Assembly: GCA_944391445.1 (NCBI GenBank)
Contig: CALXTL010000010.1
Coordinates: 1 to 64,000 of the forward strand
DNA length: 64,000 bases
DNA from: an uncultured Alphaproteobacteria bacterium
Lineage (GTDB): Bacteria > Pseudomonadota > Alphaproteobacteria > RF32 > CAG-239
Direction: 5' to 3'
Part shown: in pieces, positions 2,778 through 32,359 of the stretch
How the letters are laid out: the number at the start of each line of letters is the position of its first letter
How positions within the stretch are numbered: the first letter of the stretch is position 1
Made by a program: the position numbers and the translations under genes
The notes under the pieces: generated by a model
The model's input: only the letters and a program-made list of their open reading frames with translations
Told to the model about the DNA's origin: nothing
The model's database searches: none

Positions 2778-4429
2778 TATTGGCGCAAATCCTTAATCAG
2801 CTTGATCAAATGCGCGGTTGAGCCGTCATGGTCAGAAGTTGCCGCATTATTCTGCAATTCCGGCAAAATGCTGAGAGCCATTTGTTTGCCAAGCTCAACC
2901 CCCATTTGGTCAAAAGAGTCGATATTCCAAATAACGCCTTCAACAAAAGTTTTATGTTCATAAGCGGCAATCAGCATGCCAAGCGCATACGGATCCATTT
3001 TTTTGAAAACAAACGTATTAGACGGCCTGTTGCCGGAAAAGCTCTTGTATTTTTTCAAAGCGACCGCCTCTTCTCTGCTTTTGCCGGCCTTAATCATTTC
3101 TTCATAGGCCTCGGTTGTAGTTTTGCCGCGCATAAGCGCTTCGCCTTGCGCCAAAACATTTGCCAGCAGAATCTCATGATGCTCGCCGATTTCATTGTGT
3201 GAAATAGCCGGCACAATAAAATCACAGGGAATAACCGATGTCCCTTGATGAATCAGCTGAAAGAACGAATGCTGCACATCCGTCCCCGCACCGCCGAACA
3301 AAACCGGTGCCGTACCATATTTGACAAACTTCTCTTCATTATTGACCGATTTGCCGTTGCTTTCCATCACCAACTGCTGCAAATAAGCGGGAACATATTG
3401 CAAATACTGGTCATAAGGAATAACCGCCATTGCCCCGAATTTGAAGAAATCACGATACCAGATACTGAGCAAAGCCATCATCACCGGAATATTTTCGGCA
3501 AAACCGGCATTCTTAAAATGCATGTCCATGGCATAGGCACCATCAAGCATTTTTTCAAAATTATCCATACCGACCGCCAGCGCAATCGACAACCCTATCG
3601 CCGACCACATGGAATAGCGCCCGCCGACAAAATCCCAAAATTCAAACATATTTTCCACATCAATGCCAAATTTGGCAACTTCTTTGGCATTAGTTGACAC
3701 CGCGACAAAGTGTTTGGCAACAGCATGCTCGCCAAGTGCATCGACCAGCCATTTGCGACAGGTTTTGGCATTGGTCAGAGTTTCAATGGTGGTAAAAGTT
3801 TTTGAACAAATAATAAACAACGTCTCTTCCGGATCAATTTTATTTAAAACTTCAGCGCAGGCCGTGCCGTCGATATTGGAAATAAAATAACATTTCATGT
3901 CTTTGGCCCAGTAACGACGCAAAGCCTCGCAAGCCATTTTGGGACCAAGATCCGACCCGCCGATACCGATATTGACAATATTAGTCAGTTTTTTACCGGT
4001 ATGCCCGGTAAATTTACCAAGCCGGACAGCTTCGGAAAACTGACGCATTTTAGCCAAAACCTCATTAATTTTCGGCATGACGTTTTTGCCGTCGACATAA
4101 ATCGGCGCATGACCTCTGTTTCGCAAAGCCACATGCAAAACCGCGCGTTTTTCCGTCTGATTAATTTTCTCACCGGCAAACATGGCCTCAATTTTATCAC
4201 CAAGATTTCGCTCGGCCGCCAGTTGCAGCAATGCTTCTTTAATTTTATCATCAATCCTGTTTTTGGAATAGTCAAAAGTCAGATTTTCTAAAGAAATGCT
4301 GTATTTTTCGGCCCTGTGTGAATCTTTGGCAAACAAATCGCGCATTTGCGTTTTGGCAAATTTTTTATAACATTTTTCCAGATTCTTCCAGCTTTTAAGC
4401 TTATTTACTTCAAATTTTCTGCCAAACAT
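2777..4429 (-). CDS. pgi: Glucose-6-phosphate isomerase
   Basis: A 550-residue protein of the large, enterobacterial-type PGI class. It interconverts glucose-6-phosphate and fructose-6-phosphate in glycolysis and gluconeogenesis. The sugar-phosphate-binding SIS folds are recognisable: IGIGGSDLGP near residue 155, SNIDGT and CSKTFTT near residues 205-235, then VGGRYSMWSAIGL near 290, and the C-terminal conserved part near residue 500. The start ATG is preceded by a strong AAGGAG. The gene sits 18 bases after the M16 gene and overlaps mutL at the stop, so a metabolic enzyme is embedded in an envelope/repair operon. Confidence 0.97.
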   Translation of the reverse strand: MFGRKFEVNKLKSWKNLEKCYKKFAKTQMRDLFAKDSHRAEKYSISLENLTFDYSKNRIDDKIKEALLQLAAERNLGDKIEAMFAGEKINQTEKRAVLHVALRNRGHAPIYVDGKNVMPKINEVLAKMRQFSEAVRLGKFTGHTGKKLTNIVNIGIGGSDLGPKMACEALRRYWAKDMKCYFISNIDGTACAEVLNKIDPEETLFIICSKTFTTIETLTNAKTCRKWLVDALGEHAVAKHFVAVSTNAKEVAKFGIDVENMFEFWDFVGGRYSMWSAIGLSIALAVGMDNFEKMLDGAYAMDMHFKNAGFAENIPVMMALLSIWYRDFFKFGAMAVIPYDQYLQYVPAYLQQLVMESNGKSVNNEEKFVKYGTAPVLFGGAGTDVQHSFFQLIHQGTSVIPCDFIVPAISHNEIGEHHEILLANVLAQGEALMRGKTTTEAYEEMIKAGKSREEAVALKKYKSFSGNRPSNTFVFKKMDPYALGMLIAAYEHKTFVEGVIWNIDSFDQMGVELGKQMALSILPELQNNAATSDHDGSTAHLIKLIKDLRQ

Positions 4430-23840: not shown

Positions 23841-24719
23841 CTATGGCTCTTTGCGAATGATATCATAGCGGCTGCCGCGCCGTTCTTGCGTATATAATAA
23901 TCCGTTTTTGTTGCGAATTTTCGGATTCGCACCGGCATTAATCAACAAACGGATTGCCTCGTTGTTATCAGCGGCAATAGCCGAAAACAACGGTGTATTG
24001 CCATTATTATCGCGAATATCCAGATCGGCTTTACGACTGATCAGATATTTCAAAGGCTCCAGACTTTCGCCTTTCGACACATTGGCGGCCAGATGCAGCG
24101 GCGCCAAACCGCCGGCATCCTGAGCATTAATATCGGCGCCGTTTTCAACTAAAAGTTTGATCACCTCCATAATATACGGCATCTGCGCTTCCCGAATTTG
24201 CTTAAACACATCACGATAAACCCCGCGCACGGCTTTGCGGTCTCGTTCGCTGACCTGGCTGCACGGTTTAGCAGAAAGAATCCCCGGTACTTCGCATGTA
24301 CCGTTTGTCTGTTTCAATTTACTATCCACCGCGTCAATAAAATCCCGCTCCTGAATTTCCGATTGCGTAAGCAAAGAGATCGTCCAGCTCAGCGGTGCCA
24401 TTGTCCCTGTCTGACAAGGCTGTTTGTTGACATCGGCGCCGCCGGCAATCAGAATTCTGATTTTGGCCACAGCATCCTCCGGCAAACTGAGATTCGGCCC
24501 GTTTTCGGTTATAACAATGCTCTGAATAGCCGTGTTCAGCAATGTCCGGCAATCATAAACCTGGTTCAGCAATGCCGGCGTCGCAACCCGAGCCAAATCG
24601 CCGACACTGCCGCTATAAATAAGCTGTTCCGCCTGAACAAAATTCTGACCGACACTGACAGCCCACGCTTTTCCGGAAAGCAACGCGCCCAGTGCCGCCG
24701 CAAGCAAAAACTTTTTCAT
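23841..24719 (-). CDS. Secreted ankyrin-repeat protein
   Basis: A 292-residue protein with a cleavable signal peptide (about 1-20, ending KAWA). A Cys-containing central region of unknown fold follows (about 30-185). Three ankyrin repeats (about 180-280) are marked by NGADINAQDAGGLAPLHLAA, KADLDIRDNNGNTPLFSAI and AGANPKIRNKNG. Ankyrin repeats mediate protein-protein contacts; in host-associated bacteria such proteins can be effectors, but a signal peptide suggests a periplasmic role here. It converges with the GT4 gene, with only 8 bases between them. Confidence 0.88.
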   Translation of the reverse strand: MKKFLLAAALGALLSGKAWAVSVGQNFVQAEQLIYSGSVGDLARVATPALLNQVYDCRTLLNTAIQSIVITENGPNLSLPEDAVAKIRILIAGGADVNKQPCQTGTMAPLSWTISLLTQSEIQERDFIDAVDSKLKQTNGTCEVPGILSAKPCSQVSERDRKAVRGVYRDVFKQIREAQMPYIMEVIKLLVENGADINAQDAGGLAPLHLAANVSKGESLEPLKYLISRKADLDIRDNNGNTPLFSAIAADNNEAIRLLINAGANPKIRNKNGLLYTQERRGSRYDIIRKEP

Positions 24720-24791
24720 GAATCAATCTCTTAAACAACAATGTTGATTCTTTTAAATAACAAAAAATATTTAATTCACGCTTAACAAAGC

Positions 24792-24825
24792 AATAAAAGA
24801 CGCCCTCATGAGGGCGTCTTTTATT
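24792..24825. terminator. Terminator of the glycan operon
   Basis: AATAAAAGACGCCCTC and GAGGGCGTCTTTTATT form a perfect 16-bp stem around a TAT/ATG-type loop. It lies downstream of the minus-strand glycan genes. Confidence 0.9.
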
Positions 24826-24942
24826 GCCGGAAACTACTTAAGGTTAATCGCATAGCGAAATTCCCCTTTCATAATTTCTTTACCAGTGCGATATTTCCCG
24901 CAAAACGGGTCACCCCAAAGAAAAAACAAAGACTTAAAAAAT

Positions 24943-27135
24943 TTATTTATATTGATTTCTGAATTTTCTGCGCTTTTGTTTATTAAAAATAAAACAGGAA
25001 ATTATCCGAGCCAAAAAATTTCTAAATTTAACAATCTGCATATTCCGCTTCATCTTTCGTTTGTTATTCGGCGCAATCTCTAATGCATCTTTCAACCAAT
25101 TCAAACTAAATATTCTAAAAGCGTCAATTTTTTTGTTAACTTCCGACCAATTAATTTGCATATGAGCAACGGCATCGGCAATTTCTTTCTCTGAACACAC
25201 GATCAAACGTTCATCCAAACCGAACTTTGTCAACAACGATTTAGCGCGTTCATTATCCTCGCCGGGCTTAGCCAGATAAACAAATGGCCGGTTATACAAC
25301 AAACTAAAACAAATACCGTGAAAAGAAGAAGTAATAACCAGCGCCGCATTTTGAATCAGCGCCAACCACTGAGCAAATGAGCGTGAATGGTTGCTTCCGT
25401 CTTTAAAAGCATTATATAGCGGCATATCTAGGCAGACATCATACGGATTAAATTTCCAAAAGGTATAGTAGACCGCATATTTTCCACAAGGAATCTCAAC
25501 TTTACCATCATCAATAATACATTGATAATCTTTCGGATGCAGCAACAAAGACGGATCAATAACATGGGTGGCATCAATACCGGCATAATCCCGGCAAATA
25601 TCAATACCGCTTTTCTCCCGAACAGAAACAGCATCAAACCGCCGCATGCAGCCGCGTTTATACCAATCCGGCGCCGGTTGTTGATTTTCGCAAAAAGAAG
25701 CTCCATAGGCAATCAATGTCTTTTTACCTTTAATCCAATCGGCAAAATAGACATATTCCCTCGTATCTTTCCAAATAACATCACTGCCGAAAATAAACTT
25801 TTCAAACATATTGTTAAATTGCTTCAAATCGCGTTTTTCTACCGCAAAACCTGACAAAGTAAGATATTTTTCCCTGAACTTCCACATTGCGCTTTGCGGA
25901 TCAAAATTCATTGTGATCGGATTCTTGTAATAATTAATCGTATATGGCTCATAGCCAAGATCTCTGACCACTTTTTCCATTGCAAAAGCCAGCAACAAAG
26001 CGCCGTAATTATCACGCGGATAATTAAAATTCATCAAGCCTACTTTTTTGTTTTTAATAGCCTGCTCAAAGGGTAATTCTGCAGCAAAACGTTCAAGTAT
26101 CTCTTCCCGATCCGGCGCAATTGCGGGAATATTACCATTGATTTTGTTCAAAGGACTGTTGCAGCGACTGTCCAAATCAAAATGATGCATCATTTGCCAA
26201 TGCGTATGTTTCAGCAACATTTCGGCTTTTGGAGAATTGACAATAAACAATGAAATTCCTTTGTTTCGTTCTTTGGCAGCCCATTTTGCCCAAACATCGC
26301 CAACAATAATATCGGCATTTCTAACCCGCCCCATAAACGGACAAACCAAACAGCAGTCACGCTTGGTCTTTCCTTGCATATACAGGGGTACATACTCGTT
26401 TTCTTTGTTAATATCCTCAACCTTATGCGTTCCATCGGCAAAGGTAAAAATAATTTTGCCTTTTGCATTTTGCATTTTGCACTCGGCCGGCCGCTTACCA
26501 TATTTGCGGCCGGCAAACTCAAGATAGCTCTGCCAAACTATTGGCGCTCCGCCGCCATGACATAAAATTTCAAGCGTTATCAAATTATCGGGATCTTCAC
26601 CCAGAAAAGCATATAAACCGGCAATTTGACATGGTGTTCCCGAATAAAAAACCATGTGGCCTGCTTTTAAAGCCGCCGCGGTTTCTGTATATGAATTACC
26701 TGTGCTGCCCCATACATATTTAGAGCCACGCATTTTTTCAACTGTTGCCAAATCATTTGTCAAAACCGTTTCAGGTAAAAAATCTTCATTCCATATTGTA
26801 CCGGCAATAAAAATTTTCTGTGTCGTCTGGAAAAAACACTCCGGCTTTGTAAGCAGACTTTTTGCCAAATTAAAAAAAGCTCCGCCGGAAGCGCTGTTCT
26901 CTGCACCGTCGGCTCGCACAACCACGGCTTTTTTAACTGGCGCTCTCTGAATTTTCCGTGTCAATACCGGACAATGCTCAACACACTGGTTGCAATTAAC
27001 ACAAATCTCCTCATCAACCTGCGGCCGCAAAAAACCATACTTATCCCGAACCATATTAATAGCTTTAACGGGACAAACTGCCGCACAGGAACCACAACCA
27101 AAACACAATTCAGTCTGCACTTTTTTGGTAATCAT
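24943..27135 (-). CDS. Ferredoxin/FrhB-like and polysaccharide pyruvyl transferase fusion
   Basis: A 730-residue two-enzyme fusion. Residues 1-60 hold two 4Fe-4S clusters (CFGCGSCAAVC and CVNCNQCVEHC). Residues about 60-370 resemble the FrhB (F420 hydrogenase/dehydrogenase beta) family, with SGGAF and YSGTPCQIAGLYAFLG. Residues about 380-700 are a polysaccharide pyruvyl transferase domain starting VGLMNFNYPRDNYGALLLAF. The combination is seen in bacterial glycan loci, suggesting a redox-linked modification of a surface sugar. The gene overlaps the acyltransferase by 26 bases, with AGGGAG ahead of its ATG. A heptamer repeat lies at about residue 220. Confidence 0.85.
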   Translation of the reverse strand: MITKKVQTELCFGCGSCAAVCPVKAINMVRDKYGFLRPQVDEEICVNCNQCVEHCPVLTRKIQRAPVKKAVVVRADGAENSASGGAFFNLAKSLLTKPECFFQTTQKIFIAGTIWNEDFLPETVLTNDLATVEKMRGSKYVWGSTGNSYTETAAALKAGHMVFYSGTPCQIAGLYAFLGEDPDNLITLEILCHGGGAPIVWQSYLEFAGRKYGKRPAECKMQNAKGKIIFTFADGTHKVEDINKENEYVPLYMQGKTKRDCCLVCPFMGRVRNADIIVGDVWAKWAAKERNKGISLFIVNSPKAEMLLKHTHWQMMHHFDLDSRCNSPLNKINGNIPAIAPDREEILERFAAELPFEQAIKNKKVGLMNFNYPRDNYGALLLAFAMEKVVRDLGYEPYTINYYKNPITMNFDPQSAMWKFREKYLTLSGFAVEKRDLKQFNNMFEKFIFGSDVIWKDTREYVYFADWIKGKKTLIAYGASFCENQQPAPDWYKRGCMRRFDAVSVREKSGIDICRDYAGIDATHVIDPSLLLHPKDYQCIIDDGKVEIPCGKYAVYYTFWKFNPYDVCLDMPLYNAFKDGSNHSRSFAQWLALIQNAALVITSSFHGICFSLLYNRPFVYLAKPGEDNERAKSLLTKFGLDERLIVCSEKEIADAVAHMQINWSEVNKKIDAFRIFSLNWLKDALEIAPNNKRKMKRNMQIVKFRNFLARIISCFIFNKQKRRKFRNQYK
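26454..26481. repeat. Heptanucleotide tandem repeat inside a CDS
   Basis: Four consecutive 7-base units read TTTTGCM on the plus strand: three are identical TTTTGCA and one is TTTTGCC. Seven is not a multiple of three, so gain or loss of a unit would shift the reading frame of the FrhB/pyruvyl transferase gene. Confidence 0.85.
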
Positions 27136-27860
27136 AAATTGTCTCCCTGTGATGTTTAACATGGTGTCTGATAACTTTTGCGGGATTTCCGGCCACAATT
27201 ATATAAGGCTCATCAAATTTAGATGTTACAACCGAACCGCTGCCAACAATTGTATCATGCGGCAAAACAACATTTTTATTAATAATGCTGCGCAACCCGA
27301 TCCAACAAGAATTTCCTATAACGCAAGGATTTTTTTGTTGGTTGAGAACATGACTTGTCCCTTCTTCGACAATAGTATGCCCATCTGTTGTGCGGATAAT
27401 GATTTCATATGAAAAACGACAGTCATCACCGATAAAACATTTACTGCCATTACCAAGCCAGATCTTGGTCCCATTCATACCGGTACGCTTGCCAATTCGA
27501 AGCTCACTACCTTCCCCCGGCAAAAAAATCGCCTCCATATCCAACCCGGCGCTGTCTCCAGAATCTTCAAGCACGCAAAGACTATTGACACATCTTTCTG
27601 AAAAAGAAAGACACACGTGTCGACATTTCAGATTTTTGTGAATTTTCACCACATTATACCCCCCCCCGGGTACTTGAATTGATAATTGACAGATTTTTAG
27701 GCAGATCACTTTGCCGCGTTATTCTGACCTCGGACCGATCATCAAACAAATAAACTTCTGTCAACAATTTTTTCGAACGAAACTTAACCTTAAAGCCAAA
27801 AATACTCAAAATTTTATGCCCGCCGTCACGCGAATCTGCAAAGCCAAACCATTTACTCAT
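27110..27860 (-). CDS. Hexapeptide-repeat acyltransferase, frameshifted at a G9 tract
   Basis: Two overlapping minus-strand frames together look like one acyltransferase. The N-terminal frame (from the ATG at 27860, overlapping the glycosyltransferase stop as ATGA) runs about 67 codons and then stops just after a G9 tract. The C-terminal frame continues with the left-handed beta-helix repeats (EGSELRIGKRTGMNGTKIWL onward) and ends with CWIGLRSIIN and IVAGNPAKVI, typical of xenobiotic/maltose-type acetyltransferases. With G8 (one base less) the frames join into about 249 residues. As drawn here the gene is off. It would O- or N-acetylate a glycan. Confidence 0.82.
27659..27667. repeat. Homopolymer G9 (minus strand) slippage tract
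   Basis: Nine consecutive C on the plus strand (G on the coding strand) sit exactly where the acyltransferase reading frame breaks. Poly-G tracts of this length are classical slipped-strand mispairing sites. Confidence 0.9.
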
Positions 27861-29104
27861 TTTGATAATTTCCCCAATAAATGTCCGCAAAAACTGTCTT
27901 TGTGAATACTAAGTATTTTCCGCCCCAAAAAATAAAAACGAATTCGCTTTCCACCTGTTGGCAACTCTTTTTCAAATATATAAAAAAACCAAGAGCATTT
28001 ATGGAACATCTTCCGAGGGCGTTTACAAAATTCATCAGCCATGGCCAATACTTCTGCCCGTTCACGTTCCGGCGTGCCCAAACTAATATATTGTTGCCGT
28101 GTTGCACGCTGCATGGCTGATAAAATTTCTCTTGATTTCTCTGACAAAAATTTCATTGCCGCATACAAGGCGTTCTCATCGCCAGCTTTAACAATCAAAC
28201 CACCCTTTCCGTCATCAATTAAATAATTGGCGCCAACTTTATCAGTCGTAATCATAATCTTGCCATACATACAACCTTCTATCGCCGTCAAACCGGAAGG
28301 CTCATCTAACGACGGCACCACCAAAACATCAATATCGTCAAAAAATTTTTGCTTCTCTGCGCTTTCAATTTCGCCAAGCCAAACCGCGTTTTTTGTATTT
28401 TTAAAAATTTTACATCCGTAAGTATGATTATAATTTCCGGCAATCGTCAGCGTAACATTTTTATTTTCTTTCGCTAACCTGTCAAAAGCTCTGGTCAGCA
28501 CATCCACTCCTTTAACCGGAATAATTGAACCTATGTAACCGAAACGGAGTTTTTTCCCAATCGGAGTAAAGTGCTCAAACATATCAGCCACGGCATTATT
28601 GATAACGCGAACATGAGGATTATACTTTCTTACAACATCAGCAGCATAATCAGATACAGTGTAAATATTCTCAAAACGGGAAAACAAAGAAGCAAATGTC
28701 GGATTTCCGGTCATTGCATCATCCACAAGCTTAGTTTCACGAATAAACCACACAAGCGGAATTCCCGTCCGCCGTAAAACATCAACATATTTATAAGTTT
28801 CGGTTGTATTACAGAGAATAAAGCTATAATCTTTAGTTGATAAACGCCAAGCTTTTATAATTTTCCAATATGTATCTGTTTTAAAAATGAGCGGTTCAAA
28901 ACCTGCTTCTTGATACTTGGATAATAGTTTTCCGCCTCTGATTGTCCAAACGTCAACCTTATAACCAGCCGCCGAAAAATATTTTGCCTGCCGTAATAAT
29001 GAATTTGGTGCCCCACTGATACTAAGCTCATGTGAAATTAATAAAATTTTCTTATTTTTAACACCCATATCTGATTCCGGCTTTTTTTGGCTAAACTCAA
29101 CCAT
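27857..29104 (-). CDS. GT4 family glycosyltransferase, first gene of the glycan operon
   Basis: A 415-residue GT-B glycosyltransferase. The N-terminal acceptor domain has SHELSISGAPNSLLRQAKY (about 25-43). The C-terminal domain begins at LRFGYIGSIIPVKGVDVL (about 180) and has the nucleotide-sugar site PSLDEPSGLTAIEGCMYGK near 272. A short tail after residue 365 contains RIRFYFLGRKIL, a segment type also found in the adjacent acyltransferase N-terminus. No clear ribosome site is seen before the ATG at 29104; an internal ATG 12 codons later is possible. Its stop overlaps the next gene. Confidence 0.88.
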   Translation of the reverse strand: MVEFSQKKPESDMGVKNKKILLISHELSISGAPNSLLRQAKYFSAAGYKVDVWTIRGGKLLSKYQEAGFEPLIFKTDTYWKIIKAWRLSTKDYSFILCNTTETYKYVDVLRRTGIPLVWFIRETKLVDDAMTGNPTFASLFSRFENIYTVSDYAADVVRKYNPHVRVINNAVADMFEHFTPIGKKLRFGYIGSIIPVKGVDVLTRAFDRLAKENKNVTLTIAGNYNHTYGCKIFKNTKNAVWLGEIESAEKQKFFDDIDVLVVPSLDEPSGLTAIEGCMYGKIMITTDKVGANYLIDDGKGGLIVKAGDENALYAAMKFLSEKSREILSAMQRATRQQYISLGTPERERAEVLAMADEFCKRPRKMFHKCSWFFYIFEKELPTGGKRIRFYFLGRKILSIHKDSFCGHLLGKLSK

Positions 29105-29244
29105 TGAATAATAGTAAAATTATAATATCTTATGTAAAGAAAAAGACAAGTCAAAAGTTAAAAACATAAAATCATTGTGAATAACGGTTCTTATTTTTCT
29201 CTCTCAAAAACGTCAGATAGTAAGAAAATTTCCAAAGGCCGCAA

Positions 29245-29281
29245 AAAAAAGAACTCTCCTTTGAGGAGAGCTCTTTCAAAA
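29245..29281 (-). terminator. Terminator after the small membrane protein
   Basis: AGAGCTCTCCTC and GAGGAGAGTTCT-type arms form a strong stem followed by a T run on the minus strand, right after the 64-residue membrane protein. Confidence 0.85.
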
Positions 29282-29290
29282 AACGGCAGA

Positions 29291-29485
29291 TCAAAAGAAA
29301 CTGCGACGCCGGCGCAAATGCCATAACCCCGCCGCACTGAGCGCAACATCGGCGGCCACGCCTGCAGTTGCGAACGAAACGGCGGCGGCATCTTCATGGC
29401 CGTTAAAACCAAATACCCAAAACAAAACAATGCCCAACGCAGCGATCGTCAAAAATGTCCACCAGATTTTTTCTAATTTTTTCAT
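29291..29485 (-). CDS. Small two-helix membrane protein
   Basis: A 64-residue protein starting MKKLEKIW. Two hydrophobic helices (about 9-28 and 33-55) are separated by a short acidic turn (GHEDAA) and followed by a positively charged end (RRRRSFF), as expected for a small inner-membrane protein with the tail in the cytoplasm. There is no strong ribosome site. A terminator follows directly. No homologue is recognised, so function is unknown. Confidence 0.55.
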   Translation of the reverse strand: MKKLEKIWWTFLTIAALGIVLFWVFGFNGHEDAAAVSFATAGVAADVALSAAGLWHLRRRRSFF

Positions 29486-29642
29486 AATACATCAGGTTTC
29501 TTTACAGAGGGGGCACCCTTTGATGCTTCCTGTTCCCTCCTTATAATTAAATAAACAATACTTAAAATACAAAAAGTATTATATCACAATTTTTCAAAAT
29601 TCAAACCCCCTATCTGCCTCAAAAAAACTTTTACTTATTTTC

Positions 29643-31025
29643 TTAAAACTCATCACTCAAAATTTTCATCATCTCTTCCCAAACTTTTTCATAGATAGTT
29701 TTCTGCCGATACGGATCATAGTTATTGGTTTGCAAGAGATGCGGAGGAAACAATCTGTAACACGGGTTTCTTCTAGTTGCATCCGGAATTTCAACCATAC
29801 ATACAATTACTTCCTGTAAGTTATAGTCTTCTCCACGATTTGCAGTCAAAGGAGTGTCATAACGCAAAGAATTTGTATAATGCCGATCATTGGCAAATTT
29901 ATAATTAAAGAAATGAGCCAACTTTTGACTGTCGCTTAATCTTCCGCCCTCTTCCGTTTTAAGCAAAGCTATTTCACGTTTATACTTATCAAAATAAGCA
30001 CGCATGATATAAGCAACAAAATATACATACGGCGCATGTTTATAAAGAGTCCATCCGCACATCACTTTATGCACTTGCTCAAATATACGCCTAAAATCTC
30101 GGAGGCTTAAATCAAAAATAAATCCAAGGTTATTTAACAAATTAACCAAGAAATCATTCTCCGCAAACATCATAAAATCATATTCGCGAATTAATGATCG
30201 GATATAATTTTTATAATCTCCCAGCGGCAGATAAAACTCAAAATCAACAATTCTCTTTAAATAACCAGCTGCATTTTTTGCTCCGTAAAATTGTTGTATT
30301 GTTGATTTTAACTGTTCGTCATCAACTGCCAAGATAAATGTTATACCTTTAATATTAAACAAGTGCTTAATATAATCTAGTAATCTAACGGCAAAATCAG
30401 CTTTACACCTATCTAAATCATCAATAAAAACAACCAAAGGAAATTCTTTCCTTTGAGTATCAACTAACTGACTTAAAGCATGACGAAATTCGCTAATAAC
30501 ATTTTCGCGATTTAGCTCAATATCTAATACATCATTACAAAGCTTTTGTACCTGCTGTGAATGATCATCCACATCTTGAGCAAAATCACAAGCTGCATCT
30601 ATCAGCTTATCTGTATCTATGCCTATATATTTTCCAACAAAAGCACCCAAACAGTATTTCAGCATTGCCGGAATATTGTTTACAACTAACTTTTGAGCAG
30701 CCGCCTTAAACCCGGCGCTGTTAGGAGAAGTTTCAAAATGTCTGATAAAAATGCTGCAAAAAGAGATAAAAGCATCTTGAGCATAATCATGCTGCCAAGC
30801 ATTATAATATAATGTTTTATACCCTTTTTGTTCTAAATGCTTTTTAAGAAGATTGACAAAAAATGTCTTTCCACTGCCAAATTGCCCCGAAATTTGCAAA
30901 ACAAAATTATCATCTTTCTCTGAAAAAATCAATTTTTCTATGGATGAAAGATATTTATAGCGTTCAAATTTATCCTCGTGTTTCAGATCATCCAAACTTA
31001 GCACATCATAATTACGTTCTATCAT
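29643..31025 (-). CDS. KAP family P-loop NTPase
   Basis: A 460-residue protein of the KAP P-loop NTPase class. Walker A is GQFGSGKT (about residue 46), and Walker B is LVVFIDDLDRC (about 198-208). The helical KAP insert precedes Walker B. The usual transmembrane helices inside the KAP domain are not obvious here, so it may be a soluble variant. AAGGA precedes the ATG. The KAP class includes membrane-associated regulators and several phage-defence proteins; which applies here is not known. The gene is distinctly more AT-rich than the housekeeping genes around it, consistent with lateral acquisition. Confidence 0.85.
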   Translation of the reverse strand: MIERNYDVLSLDDLKHEDKFERYKYLSSIEKLIFSEKDDNFVLQISGQFGSGKTFFVNLLKKHLEQKGYKTLYYNAWQHDYAQDAFISFCSIFIRHFETSPNSAGFKAAAQKLVVNNIPAMLKYCLGAFVGKYIGIDTDKLIDAACDFAQDVDDHSQQVQKLCNDVLDIELNRENVISEFRHALSQLVDTQRKEFPLVVFIDDLDRCKADFAVRLLDYIKHLFNIKGITFILAVDDEQLKSTIQQFYGAKNAAGYLKRIVDFEFYLPLGDYKNYIRSLIREYDFMMFAENDFLVNLLNNLGFIFDLSLRDFRRIFEQVHKVMCGWTLYKHAPYVYFVAYIMRAYFDKYKREIALLKTEEGGRLSDSQKLAHFFNYKFANDRHYTNSLRYDTPLTANRGEDYNLQEVIVCMVEIPDATRRNPCYRLFPPHLLQTNNYDPYRQKTIYEKVWEEMMKILSDEF

Positions 31026-31056
31026 TTTTCTTTTCCTTGTTTTTTTGACAATACCG

Positions 31057-31320
31057 CTAAAAGAACTTCTTTATATTAGAAACAAAATATGAGCCAAATA
31101 TCAAAAAAATAAAAAAAACAAACGTTTTATATGCTCTTTTAAGCAGTGAAAAATCAATTTCACCTTTCATAAACGGACTATAATTAAACGACTTTGCCCC
31201 GCCTTTTGTATCAACATCTTCTTTTCGAATTGTTTTATTCCATAAAAAATTATTCAGAGAATCAAAAGAATATGGATAACAAACCCGTCCAACATCAAAG
31301 ATACAAAATCTTATGGCCAT
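31057..31320 (-). pseudogene. Truncated HAD-superfamily-like fragment
   Basis: An 87-codon frame. Its first 60 or so residues read like the start of a HAD phosphatase: IRFCIFDVGRVCYPYSFDSLN, then a KGGAKSFNYSPFMKGEIDFSLL stretch typical of the cap entry. After that it runs into an unrelated hydrophobic stretch and stops. The catalytic core beyond motif I is missing, so it is probably the 5' end of a deleted gene next to the KAP NTPase. The alternative is a novel small membrane protein. Confidence 0.45.
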
Positions 31321-31522
31321 TTTTAATTACCTGTAACATATTTAATTCAAGAAATATTAAAATACAGAAGTTAACCAGTTACAAGCTTTTTGAATAATAT
31401 CTAAACATCTTATCCTTAGGATTATTTAGTTAAAAACAATAACTTTTGTATTTATTCGTTCCCCCCAAAAAAAATGATATTTTTTCAAAAAACATAACAT
31501 CAAAACTCAGTTAAACGCTTGA

Positions 31523-31555
31523 TAAAAAAACAGCCCCTGCAATAGGAGCTGTTAA
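31523..31555 (-). terminator. Terminator of the CAT tRNA
   Basis: On the minus strand AACAGCTCC pairs with GGGGCTGTT around TATTGCA, followed by TTTTTTATC. It lies immediately after the tRNA 3' end. Confidence 0.88.
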
Positions 31556-31558
31556 TGA

Positions 31559-31635
31559 TGGTGGGCCCAGATGGACTCGAACCAACGACCAGACCGTTAT
31601 GAGCGGCCCGCTCTAACCAACTGAGCTATGGGCCC
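31559..31635 (-). tRNA. tRNA with CAT anticodon (Met elongator or Ile2)
   Basis: A 77-nt tRNA on the minus strand. The acceptor GGGCCCA pairs with TGGGCCC, the D-arm is GCTCAGTTGGTTAGAGC, the anticodon loop is CTCATAA, the T-loop is GTTCGAGTC, and CCA is encoded. The anticodon is CAT. The acceptor sequence looks more like the lysidine-modified isoleucine tRNA (AUA) than elongator methionine, but the two cannot be separated by eye. Confidence 0.92.
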
Positions 31636-31735
31636 GAAATTTACCTGTTCGGCAAACCCAAACTGCTCAGAAAATAAGTCAAAACCCAAACTTAGTCAAG
31701 AGCTTTTTGCCCAAAACACTGCCTTAAAAAATATA

Positions 31736-31764
31736 TAGACAAAAATGCGTTTTTGCATTATATT
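31736..31764 (+). promoter_or_regulatory. Promoter of the 31802 gene, with internal palindrome
   Basis: TAGACA and TATATT sit 17 bases apart, a good sigma-70 match. GACAAAAAT and ATTTTTGTC form an inverted repeat across the same stretch (31738-31770), which may be a repressor site. Confidence 0.6.
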
Positions 31765-31801
31765 TTTGTCAAAATCATTAACGCATTGAGGAAATCCCGC
31801 C

Positions 31802-32359
31802 ATGAAAAACATATATCGTGTTGTCTGTAGCGAAAATCAACGTTTATACCCCGGCAAAACATTTATCGACATCTACCCCGCCGGCAGTATGCGCCCGGAA
31901 AACAGCCTCACTCACGACTGCCTGTTACAAATGCGACGGATGGCCTCCCCCGGCGTTGACAAAATTGAATCCGGCATTTTACTGACTGAATTGGATAATG
32001 GCGAAATCTCTCTGCAATATGAAAAAAGAACAAATTATCGTTTACGGCGCTATCAGGAGCATCTTCGTCAACGGTTAGACCCGAAAATCATTGCAACATT
32101 CAAAGAAATGAAAAGCCAAAACAAAGATCGTACGCTGGAAGTAAGCCTGGTTCATATGGCCATAATGTTTGATCTTTTCAATACTGAAAAAGACAAACCT
32201 CTCAGCGCGCGGGAAGATGCCTTGATTCGAGAAAATATGCGCCAAAAAAGACAAGCGGCTAAGCGCCGGGAACTTATTGCCCGTCAGGCTGCAGGCAAAT
32301 ATGCCGCTCATCCGGAAATTATGCTTGCCTGGAAACAGGCTCTCTATCGAGGAGACTAA
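31802..32359 (+). CDS. Unknown protein, paralogue of the gene at 52701
   Basis: This gene encodes 185 residues, with GAGGAA ahead of the ATG and a recognisable promoter upstream. It is soluble, with a basic C-terminal third rich in Arg, Lys and Ala (about 140-180) that may form a helix. It shares with the product at 52701 an N-terminal signature (YRVVCSEN here, FRVVCTED there) and a terminal YRGD motif. I recognise no known family. A terminator hairpin follows the stop. Both genes stand alone, suggesting a dispersed, lineage-specific family. Confidence 0.7.
   Translation: MKNIYRVVCSENQRLYPGKTFIDIYPAGSMRPENSLTHDCLLQMRRMASPGVDKIESGILLTELDNGEISLQYEKRTNYRLRRYQEHLRQRLDPKIIATFKEMKSQNKDRTLEVSLVHMAIMFDLFNTEKDKPLSAREDALIRENMRQKRQAAKRRELIARQAAGKYAAHPEIMLAWKQALYRGD

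What the first reader, a model, noticed from the sequence alone, without database searches (positions are those of the whole stretch)
27110..27860. Acyltransferase split by a G9 tract: candidate phase-variable glycan gene
Two frames that read as N- and C-terminal parts of one hexapeptide acyltransferase meet exactly at nine G. With one G less they fuse into a ~249-residue protein. G-tract slippage is a known way to switch surface-modifying enzymes on and off, and this gene sits in a glycan operon. The current state is off.
Basis: partly seen in the sequence, partly recalled or inferred. Interest (0 to 1): 0.75.

Follow-up and report, generated by a model that had tools for sequence, protein, structure and literature searches.

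The report
Slippage-prone G9 tract splits sugar acetyltransferase
A run of nine Gs breaks the reading frame of a gene whose product resembles enzymes that add acetyl groups to surface sugars; similar runs sit in surface-sugar genes, flagellin upstream regions and phage tail genes across this bacterial family, so it is probably a reversible genetic on/off switch of a kind known mainly from pathogens.

Summary
In detail: window 27659-27667 is C9 on the + strand (G9 on the coding strand). It ends a 68-codon frame within a few bases, while a hexapeptide acyltransferase frame continues in another phase; in this assembly the gene is OFF. The genome has 29 runs of exactly six G, none of seven, two of eight, but four of nine or more; three of those four are on a phage contig beside tail-fibre genes.

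The strongest support lies outside the window. A 34%-identical homologue in another genus (L237) is split, also out of frame, by a C9 tract about seven codons from the same point. Tractless homologues are intact. The genus has 77 G9+ tracts: in LicD, glycosyltransferase, acyltransferase and FdtA genes, in -35/-10 spacers, and upstream of flagellins. Of 50 coding tracts in the family, 24 read ON and 26 OFF.

Best reading: slipped-strand phase variation of a polysialate-O-acetyltransferase-like enzyme. It works like NeuO, but with a mononucleotide tract. Length variation within the species could not be tested. The N-terminal frame is not recognised by the homologues' profile; its link rests on codon use, geometry and a glycosyltransferase-associated motif. 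The gene is a new member of a known kind; the family-wide repertoire is the larger point.

The parts
27659..27667 (-). G9 homopolymer (C9 on +), the candidate slippage site
   Evidence: only G9+ run outside phage contig C20 in the assembly
27654..27860 (-). N-terminal frame of the split gene, 68 codons plus stop; ATG overlaps the upstream stop (ATGA); residues 3-31 carry a glycosyltransferase-associated motif
27110..27709 (-). C-terminal frame: left-handed beta-helix (hexapeptide) acyltransferase; homology begins right after the tract at YNVVKIH
   Evidence: Pfam Hexapep; PDB OatWY and NeuO; alignment of homologues
27857..29104 (-). upstream group-1 glycosyltransferase of the same operon
   Evidence: Pfam Glycos_transf_1, E 3e-23
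24943..27135 (-). downstream ferredoxin/FrhB - polysaccharide pyruvyl transferase fusion; its ATG lies inside the end of the acyltransferase frame
   Evidence: Pfam PS_pyruv_trans E 1e-27, FrhB_FdhB_C E 1e-14; start read

Best explanation
A translational phase-variation (contingency) locus. The G9 tract lies inside the coding sequence of a predicted sugar or polysaccharide O-acyltransferase in a short glycan operon. Slipped-strand mispairing during replication adds or removes G. In one of three phases the two frames join into an enzyme of about 250 residues that would modify the cell's glycan; in the other two, including the G9 assembled here, translation stops just after the tract and the catalytic beta-helix is not made from that start. 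Shown: the tract, the frames, the enzyme family of the C-terminal part, the operon layout, an independently split homologue, and tracts in surface genes across the family. Inferred: that the tract changes length in this species, that the N-terminal frame belongs to the same protein, that the enzyme acts on a surface glycan, and that switching is selected (phage or host recognition).
For: Frames meet at the tract and the gene is closely packed with both neighbours. Excess of G9+ runs over the genome's own fall-off. Homologue L237 of another genus is split out of frame by C9 near the same point, beside a LicD gene. Intact tractless homologues exist, with 61-67 residues from Met to the shared G-x-N-N motif where the start is clear; the window N frame gives 65. 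77 G9+ tracts in 33 genus genomes. Glycan genes among coding hosts with Pfam hits: 10 of 18 against 1 of 14 for G7 controls, p 0.005 (0.008 without the window). Mixed states, 24 ON and 26 OFF. Near-identical copies with different tract lengths, e.g. G15/G13 and G10/G9. N frame is coding-like, +0.278 bits per codon, no stops. Nearest solved structures are OatWY and NeuO, and NeuO is phase-variable (PMC13001214).
Against: No length variation observed in this species: no reads, one genome. The homologues' profile does not recognise the N-terminal frame (29 of 200 shuffles score as high; 81 of 200 with flexible junctions), though it recognises most homologues' N-termini. Three of the genome's four G9+ tracts are on a phage contig. 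Some genus tracts lie in frame in housekeeping genes (L127 looks like FtsH, L128 like RNase R, by eye), so not every tract is a switch. Tracts of nine are near the short end for hypermutability.
Confidence: 0.72

Rival explanations
1. Decaying pseudogene: the frame was lost once by an insertion in a G-run and the gene is not switched back.
For: The gene is OFF here; the N-terminal frame has diverged beyond recognition by the homologues' profile; no variation was observed.
Against: Both frames are otherwise open and coding-like with no second lesion. The homologue L237 is split by a tract of the other base near the same site. Tracts concentrate in glycan genes and 24 of 50 coding tracts in the family are in frame.
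Confidence: 0.12
2. Assembly or sequencing error in a homopolymer: the true tract has another length and the gene is simply intact.
For: Homopolymers are error-prone and the reads behind this assembly were not available.
Against: Even if the length is off by one, a run of eight or nine G is rare in this genome. Long runs recur in surface genes of many independently assembled genus genomes and in promoter spacers, which errors would not arrange.
Confidence: 0.06
3. Transcriptional slippage or ribosomal frameshifting at the tract makes some full-length protein from the G9 allele, so the gene is leaky rather than off.
For: Slippage on homopolymers during transcription is reported to rescue frameshifted genes in Buchnera (PMC2831843; poly-A there).
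Against: Nothing here tests it; reported cases known to me are mostly A/T runs. It would not explain why both in-frame and out-of-frame states occur across the family.
Confidence: 0.05
4. Two separate genes: the C-terminal frame starts on its own (a GTG lies 6 bases after the G-run, which might serve as a ribosome-binding site), giving a shortened acyltransferase of about 180 residues.
For: The GTG frame is open for 180 residues; a G-run pairs in part with the anti-Shine-Dalgarno sequence; the N-terminal frame lacks profile similarity to homologues.
Against: Homologues carry 61-67 residues before this point where the start is clear; the short form would begin inside the first conserved strand; the N frame has the expected length and stops only because of the phase.
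Confidence: 0.03
5. The tract is a promoter spacer (as in L092, L093, L096, L097) and the G9-TATAAT drives the downstream genes.
For: The window tract is followed directly by TATAAT, as in those four copies.
Against: The promoter scan reports no site here; TATAAT also encodes the Y-N of the homologous YNVVKIH stretch; the tract sits exactly at a frame junction.
Confidence: 0.02

Closest known systems
NeuO, phase-variable polysialic acid O-acetyltransferase of E. coli K1 (prophage CUS-3)
   Same: Hexapeptide O-acetyltransferase with sequence similarity (3jqy, E 6e-13) whose frame is set by a slippage-prone repeat (PMC13001214)
   Different: NeuO uses a heptanucleotide array in the 5' region of the gene on a prophage; here a mononucleotide G9 after about 65 codons, in a chromosomal glycan operon; the substrate is unknown
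OatWY, polysialic acid O-acetyltransferase of Neisseria meningitidis (2wlc)
   Same: Nearest solved relative by sequence (E 4e-18 over residues 69-189)
   Different: Its N-terminal part is not matched; substrate not shown here; whether OatWY is phase-variable was not examined
Poly-G contingency genes of Neisseria and Campylobacter
   Same: G tracts in surface-structure genes, some in frame and some not; tracts in promoters too (general knowledge; PMC5084427 lists 115 candidate genes in N. meningitidis)
   Different: Another class of Proteobacteria; no length variation measured here
Campylobacter phages with hypermutable poly-G tracts (cited in PMC11868660)
   Same: G9/G10 tracts beside tail-fibre-like genes on this genome's phage contig C20
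   Different: Here the tracts lie in short gaps upstream of the fibre genes; no variation seen, and no relatives were found in viral contigs

Membership tests
SSR-mediated phase-variable locus | Repeat longer than expected from genome composition | tested here: met
   G6 29, G7 0, G8 2, G9+ 4; weaker if the three phage tracts are set aside
SSR-mediated phase-variable locus | Length change of the repeat alters the reading frame or promoter of a gene | tested here: met
   The two frames meet at the tract, on the assumption that they belong to one protein
SSR-mediated phase-variable locus | Reversible, high-frequency length variation within the species | not testable with these tools
   No reads and no second genome of the species
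Hexapeptide (LbH) acyltransferase | Hexapeptide-repeat beta-helix with the acetyltransferase motifs | tested here: met
   Hexapep E 3e-5, just below Pfam's cut-off; PDB matches to OatWY, NeuO, MAT, GAT
Polysialic acid O-acetyltransferase (NeuO/OatWY) | Acts on polysialic acid | not testable with these tools
   Sequence match covers only the catalytic domain; sialic acid genes were not looked for in this genome
Polysialic acid O-acetyltransferase (NeuO/OatWY) | Heptanucleotide array at the 5' end (NeuO) | tested here: not met
   The repeat here is a G9 homopolymer; NeuO's is AAGACTC. It works like NeuO but is not filed as NeuO

The most novel reading that the evidence does not exclude
A family of alphaproteobacteria with genomes of about 1.5 Mb runs a multi-locus poly-G/C phasome covering glycan enzymes (LicD, and O-acetyltransferases with independently gained tracts at nearly the same site), flagellins, promoter spacers, a DNA methylase and prophage tail fibres: a multi-locus phase-variation repertoire in a lineage for which I found no published report.
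Probability: 0.6. Interest if true: 0.72.

Novelty: new member of a known kind. Interest (0 to 1): 0.55.

Why it matters
[quoted passage not shown] A genus of about 1.5-Mb alphaproteobacterial genomes with up to about 14 G9+ tracts per genome (G031), and a relative in the same family with 32 exact-G9 tracts (G038), makes that question testable from existing reads. Tracts near the same site in two genera's acetyltransferases, plus tracts beside prophage fibre genes, suggest slippage on both sides of a phage-host surface contest that could be read out in metagenomes (inference).

Tried and rejected
Same-species variation: a genome-contig scan for the acyltransferase found no relative; the genome search holds one genome per species, and genus homologues are at most 41% identical. 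Tract variation in the phage: three viral-contig scans, with a tract-flank pattern and two fibre proteins, found no relatives. N-terminal homology: blastp, profile with shuffles and flexible junctions were all negative; only the short glycosyltransferase-associated motif was found. Promoter reading of G9-TATAAT at the window: no site in the scan.

Full report
OBSERVATION. On the + strand the window reads C9 at 27659-27667, i.e. G9 on the minus strand. The upstream frame starts with ATG at 27860, overlapping the stop of a group-1 glycosyltransferase (27857-29104; ATGA), and reads MSKWFGFADSRDGGHKILSIFGFKVKFRSKK...INSSTRGGV*, stopping a few bases after the tract. The acyltransferase frame (27110-27709) is in another phase, and its similarity to relatives begins at YNVVKIH, directly after the tract. 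One G fewer, or two more, would put the two in register. The next gene, a ferredoxin/FrhB-polysaccharide pyruvyl transferase fusion, starts at ATG 27135, inside the end of the acyltransferase frame, so this looks like a tightly packed operon.

IS IT MORE THAN CHANCE? In the whole 1.45-Mb genome there are 29 runs of exactly six G, none of seven, two of eight and four of nine or more. Extrapolating the window's fall-off gives 0.07-0.25 expected, P about 1e-6 to 1e-4 for four; with a slow fall-off (0.34) P is about 0.1. Three of the four are on contig C20, which is phage (PHROG major head, head-tail adaptor and tail proteins), each in the gap upstream of a tail-fibre-like gene. The own-genome statistic alone is therefore not decisive for the window tract.

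WHAT THE GENE IS. The C frame matches Pfam Hexapep (E 3e-5, 23.9 bits against a cut-off of 27) and, in the PDB, OatWY (2wlc, E 4e-18) and NeuO (3jqy, E 6e-13), both polysialic acid O-acetyltransferases. NeuO is itself phase-variable through a heptanucleotide array (PMC13001214). Homologues in the genus, including two more in the same genome, are uninterrupted. The closest ones with a clear first Met have 61-67 residues before a G-x-N-N motif; the window N frame supplies 65, counted from the sequence.

THE N-TERMINAL FRAME. A profile of 13 homologues scores it no better than shuffles (29 of 200 reach it; 81 of 200 with flexible junctions), although the same kind of test recognises the N-termini of most homologues. 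It does look coding: +0.278 bits per codon and no stops, against 4 and 9 stops in the other sense frames. Residues 3-31 resemble a motif (FSIKNSKDKKHKVITILGIKFKFKRKK) found at the end of, or between domains of, glycosyltransferases in the family (best phmmer E 3.7e-6, within fetched loci that were partly chosen by this query). I take it as the diverged N-terminus of a real glycan enzyme, with moderate confidence.

INDEPENDENT RECURRENCE. Searching the family for the acyltransferase gave a 34%-identical homologue in another genus (G054, L237). Its N and C frames are split by C9 on the coding strand at L237:1463-1471, shortly after the same motif (FEGNNNIVKLY|PPP), again out of frame, with a glycosyltransferase before it and a gene that reads as LicD after it (LicD by eye). 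A tract of the other base at nearly the same site argues against one inherited accident.

THE GENUS AND FAMILY. 33 genus genomes hold 77 distinct G9+ tracts, against 57 runs of exactly G8 and more than 150 of exactly G7: the count does not keep falling beyond eight, a modest excess. Coding hosts include LicD (two), GT2 (L079, L145, L136), a GT1-like protein, FdtA, acyltransferase-3, an SDR-pyruvyl transferase fusion, a methyltransferase and a C5 DNA methylase. Among hosts with Pfam hits 10 of 18 are glycan genes, against 1 of 14 in a random G7 control; p=0.005, or 0.008 without the window (the first version had slightly wrong counts). The classing was mine and not blinded, the G9+ hosts were picked partly by frame length, and three in-frame housekeeping or phage hosts recognised only by eye (L127-L129) are not counted. 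Other tracts look regulatory: four copies of TTGACT-N10-G9/10-TATAAT before ribosome-binding sites in one genome; about eight copies of TTGAC/TTGC-G9 elements with a -10-like hexamer 10-11 bases after the tract; and tracts upstream of flagellin genes in five genomes. Near-identical contexts differ in tract length, e.g. G15/G13 and G10/G9. Across 50 coding-type tracts of the family 24 are in frame and 26 not. In the family sample 13 of 16 genera have exact-G9 runs and one genome has 32.

MECHANISM AND RIVALS. Slipped-strand mispairing at the G tract switching an O-acyltransferase fits all of this. A pseudogene, an assembly error, transcriptional or ribosomal slippage, separate initiation after the tract, and a promoter-spacer role are ranked as rivals; no promoter site was found at the window tract. 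The one feature that defines phase variation, reversible length change within the species, could not be tested.

KNOWN OR NEW. The gene is a new member of a known kind: it works like NeuO and like poly-G contingency genes of Neisseria and Campylobacter (partly general knowledge). What I did not find described, in eight searches of an open-access library, is a multi-locus poly-G/C repertoire in this alphaproteobacterial lineage; absence from that library is weak evidence of novelty. [quoted passage not shown] The lineage itself is only placed as alphaproteobacterial, from RecA.

Noticed in passing
L016 (G000:C20) 1142-1150, 1890-1899, 4282-4290: Three G9/G10 tracts on a phage contig of the same genome, each in the gap upstream of a tail-fibre-like gene; two share the same downstream flank (TAAAGGCCTAAGGCCGGCAAG).
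   Followed up: partly
L092, L093, L096, L097 (genome G010), tracts at 3501: Four copies of TTGACT-N10-G9/10-TATAAT upstream of different genes: a repeated promoter with a poly-G spacer of varying length.
   Followed up: partly
L081, L087, L088, L089, L091, L095, L122, L124: A second repeated element, TTGAC/TTGC fused to G9 with a -10-like hexamer 10-11 bases after the tract, in genomes G004, G009, G010 and G027.
   Followed up: partly
L082, L094, L098, L099, L106, L107, L134: Poly-C tracts about 30-170 bases upstream of flagellin genes in five genomes; L099 was not tested with Pfam.
   Followed up: partly
L109 (G017:C2), tract at 3501: G9 splits a C5 cytosine DNA methylase out of frame, a possible phase-variable methylase.
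   Followed up: no
L258 and L259 (G038:C4:34000-68000): 17 runs of eight or more G/C in 34 kb, in genes for KAS-III, SDR, transketolase, DegT aminotransferase, LuxC and a glycosyltransferase; G038 has 32 exact-G9 runs in all.
   Followed up: partly
L086 (G008:C26), tract at 3501: G9-TATAAT directly before the ATG of a gene reading as methionyl-tRNA formyltransferase; the G-run may act as a ribosome-binding site.
   Followed up: no
window 24000-32000: Low-GC stretch (0.34-0.42 against about 0.47 around it) between recA and rpoD-like genes, holding the glycan operon and a KAP P-loop NTPase gene (29643-31025); may be horizontally acquired.
   Followed up: no
L017 (G000:C14) 3057-3064: G8 between repeated genes with shared C-terminal domains (MYNKTKFVLMLTGGLLG... 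proteins); not examined.
   Followed up: no
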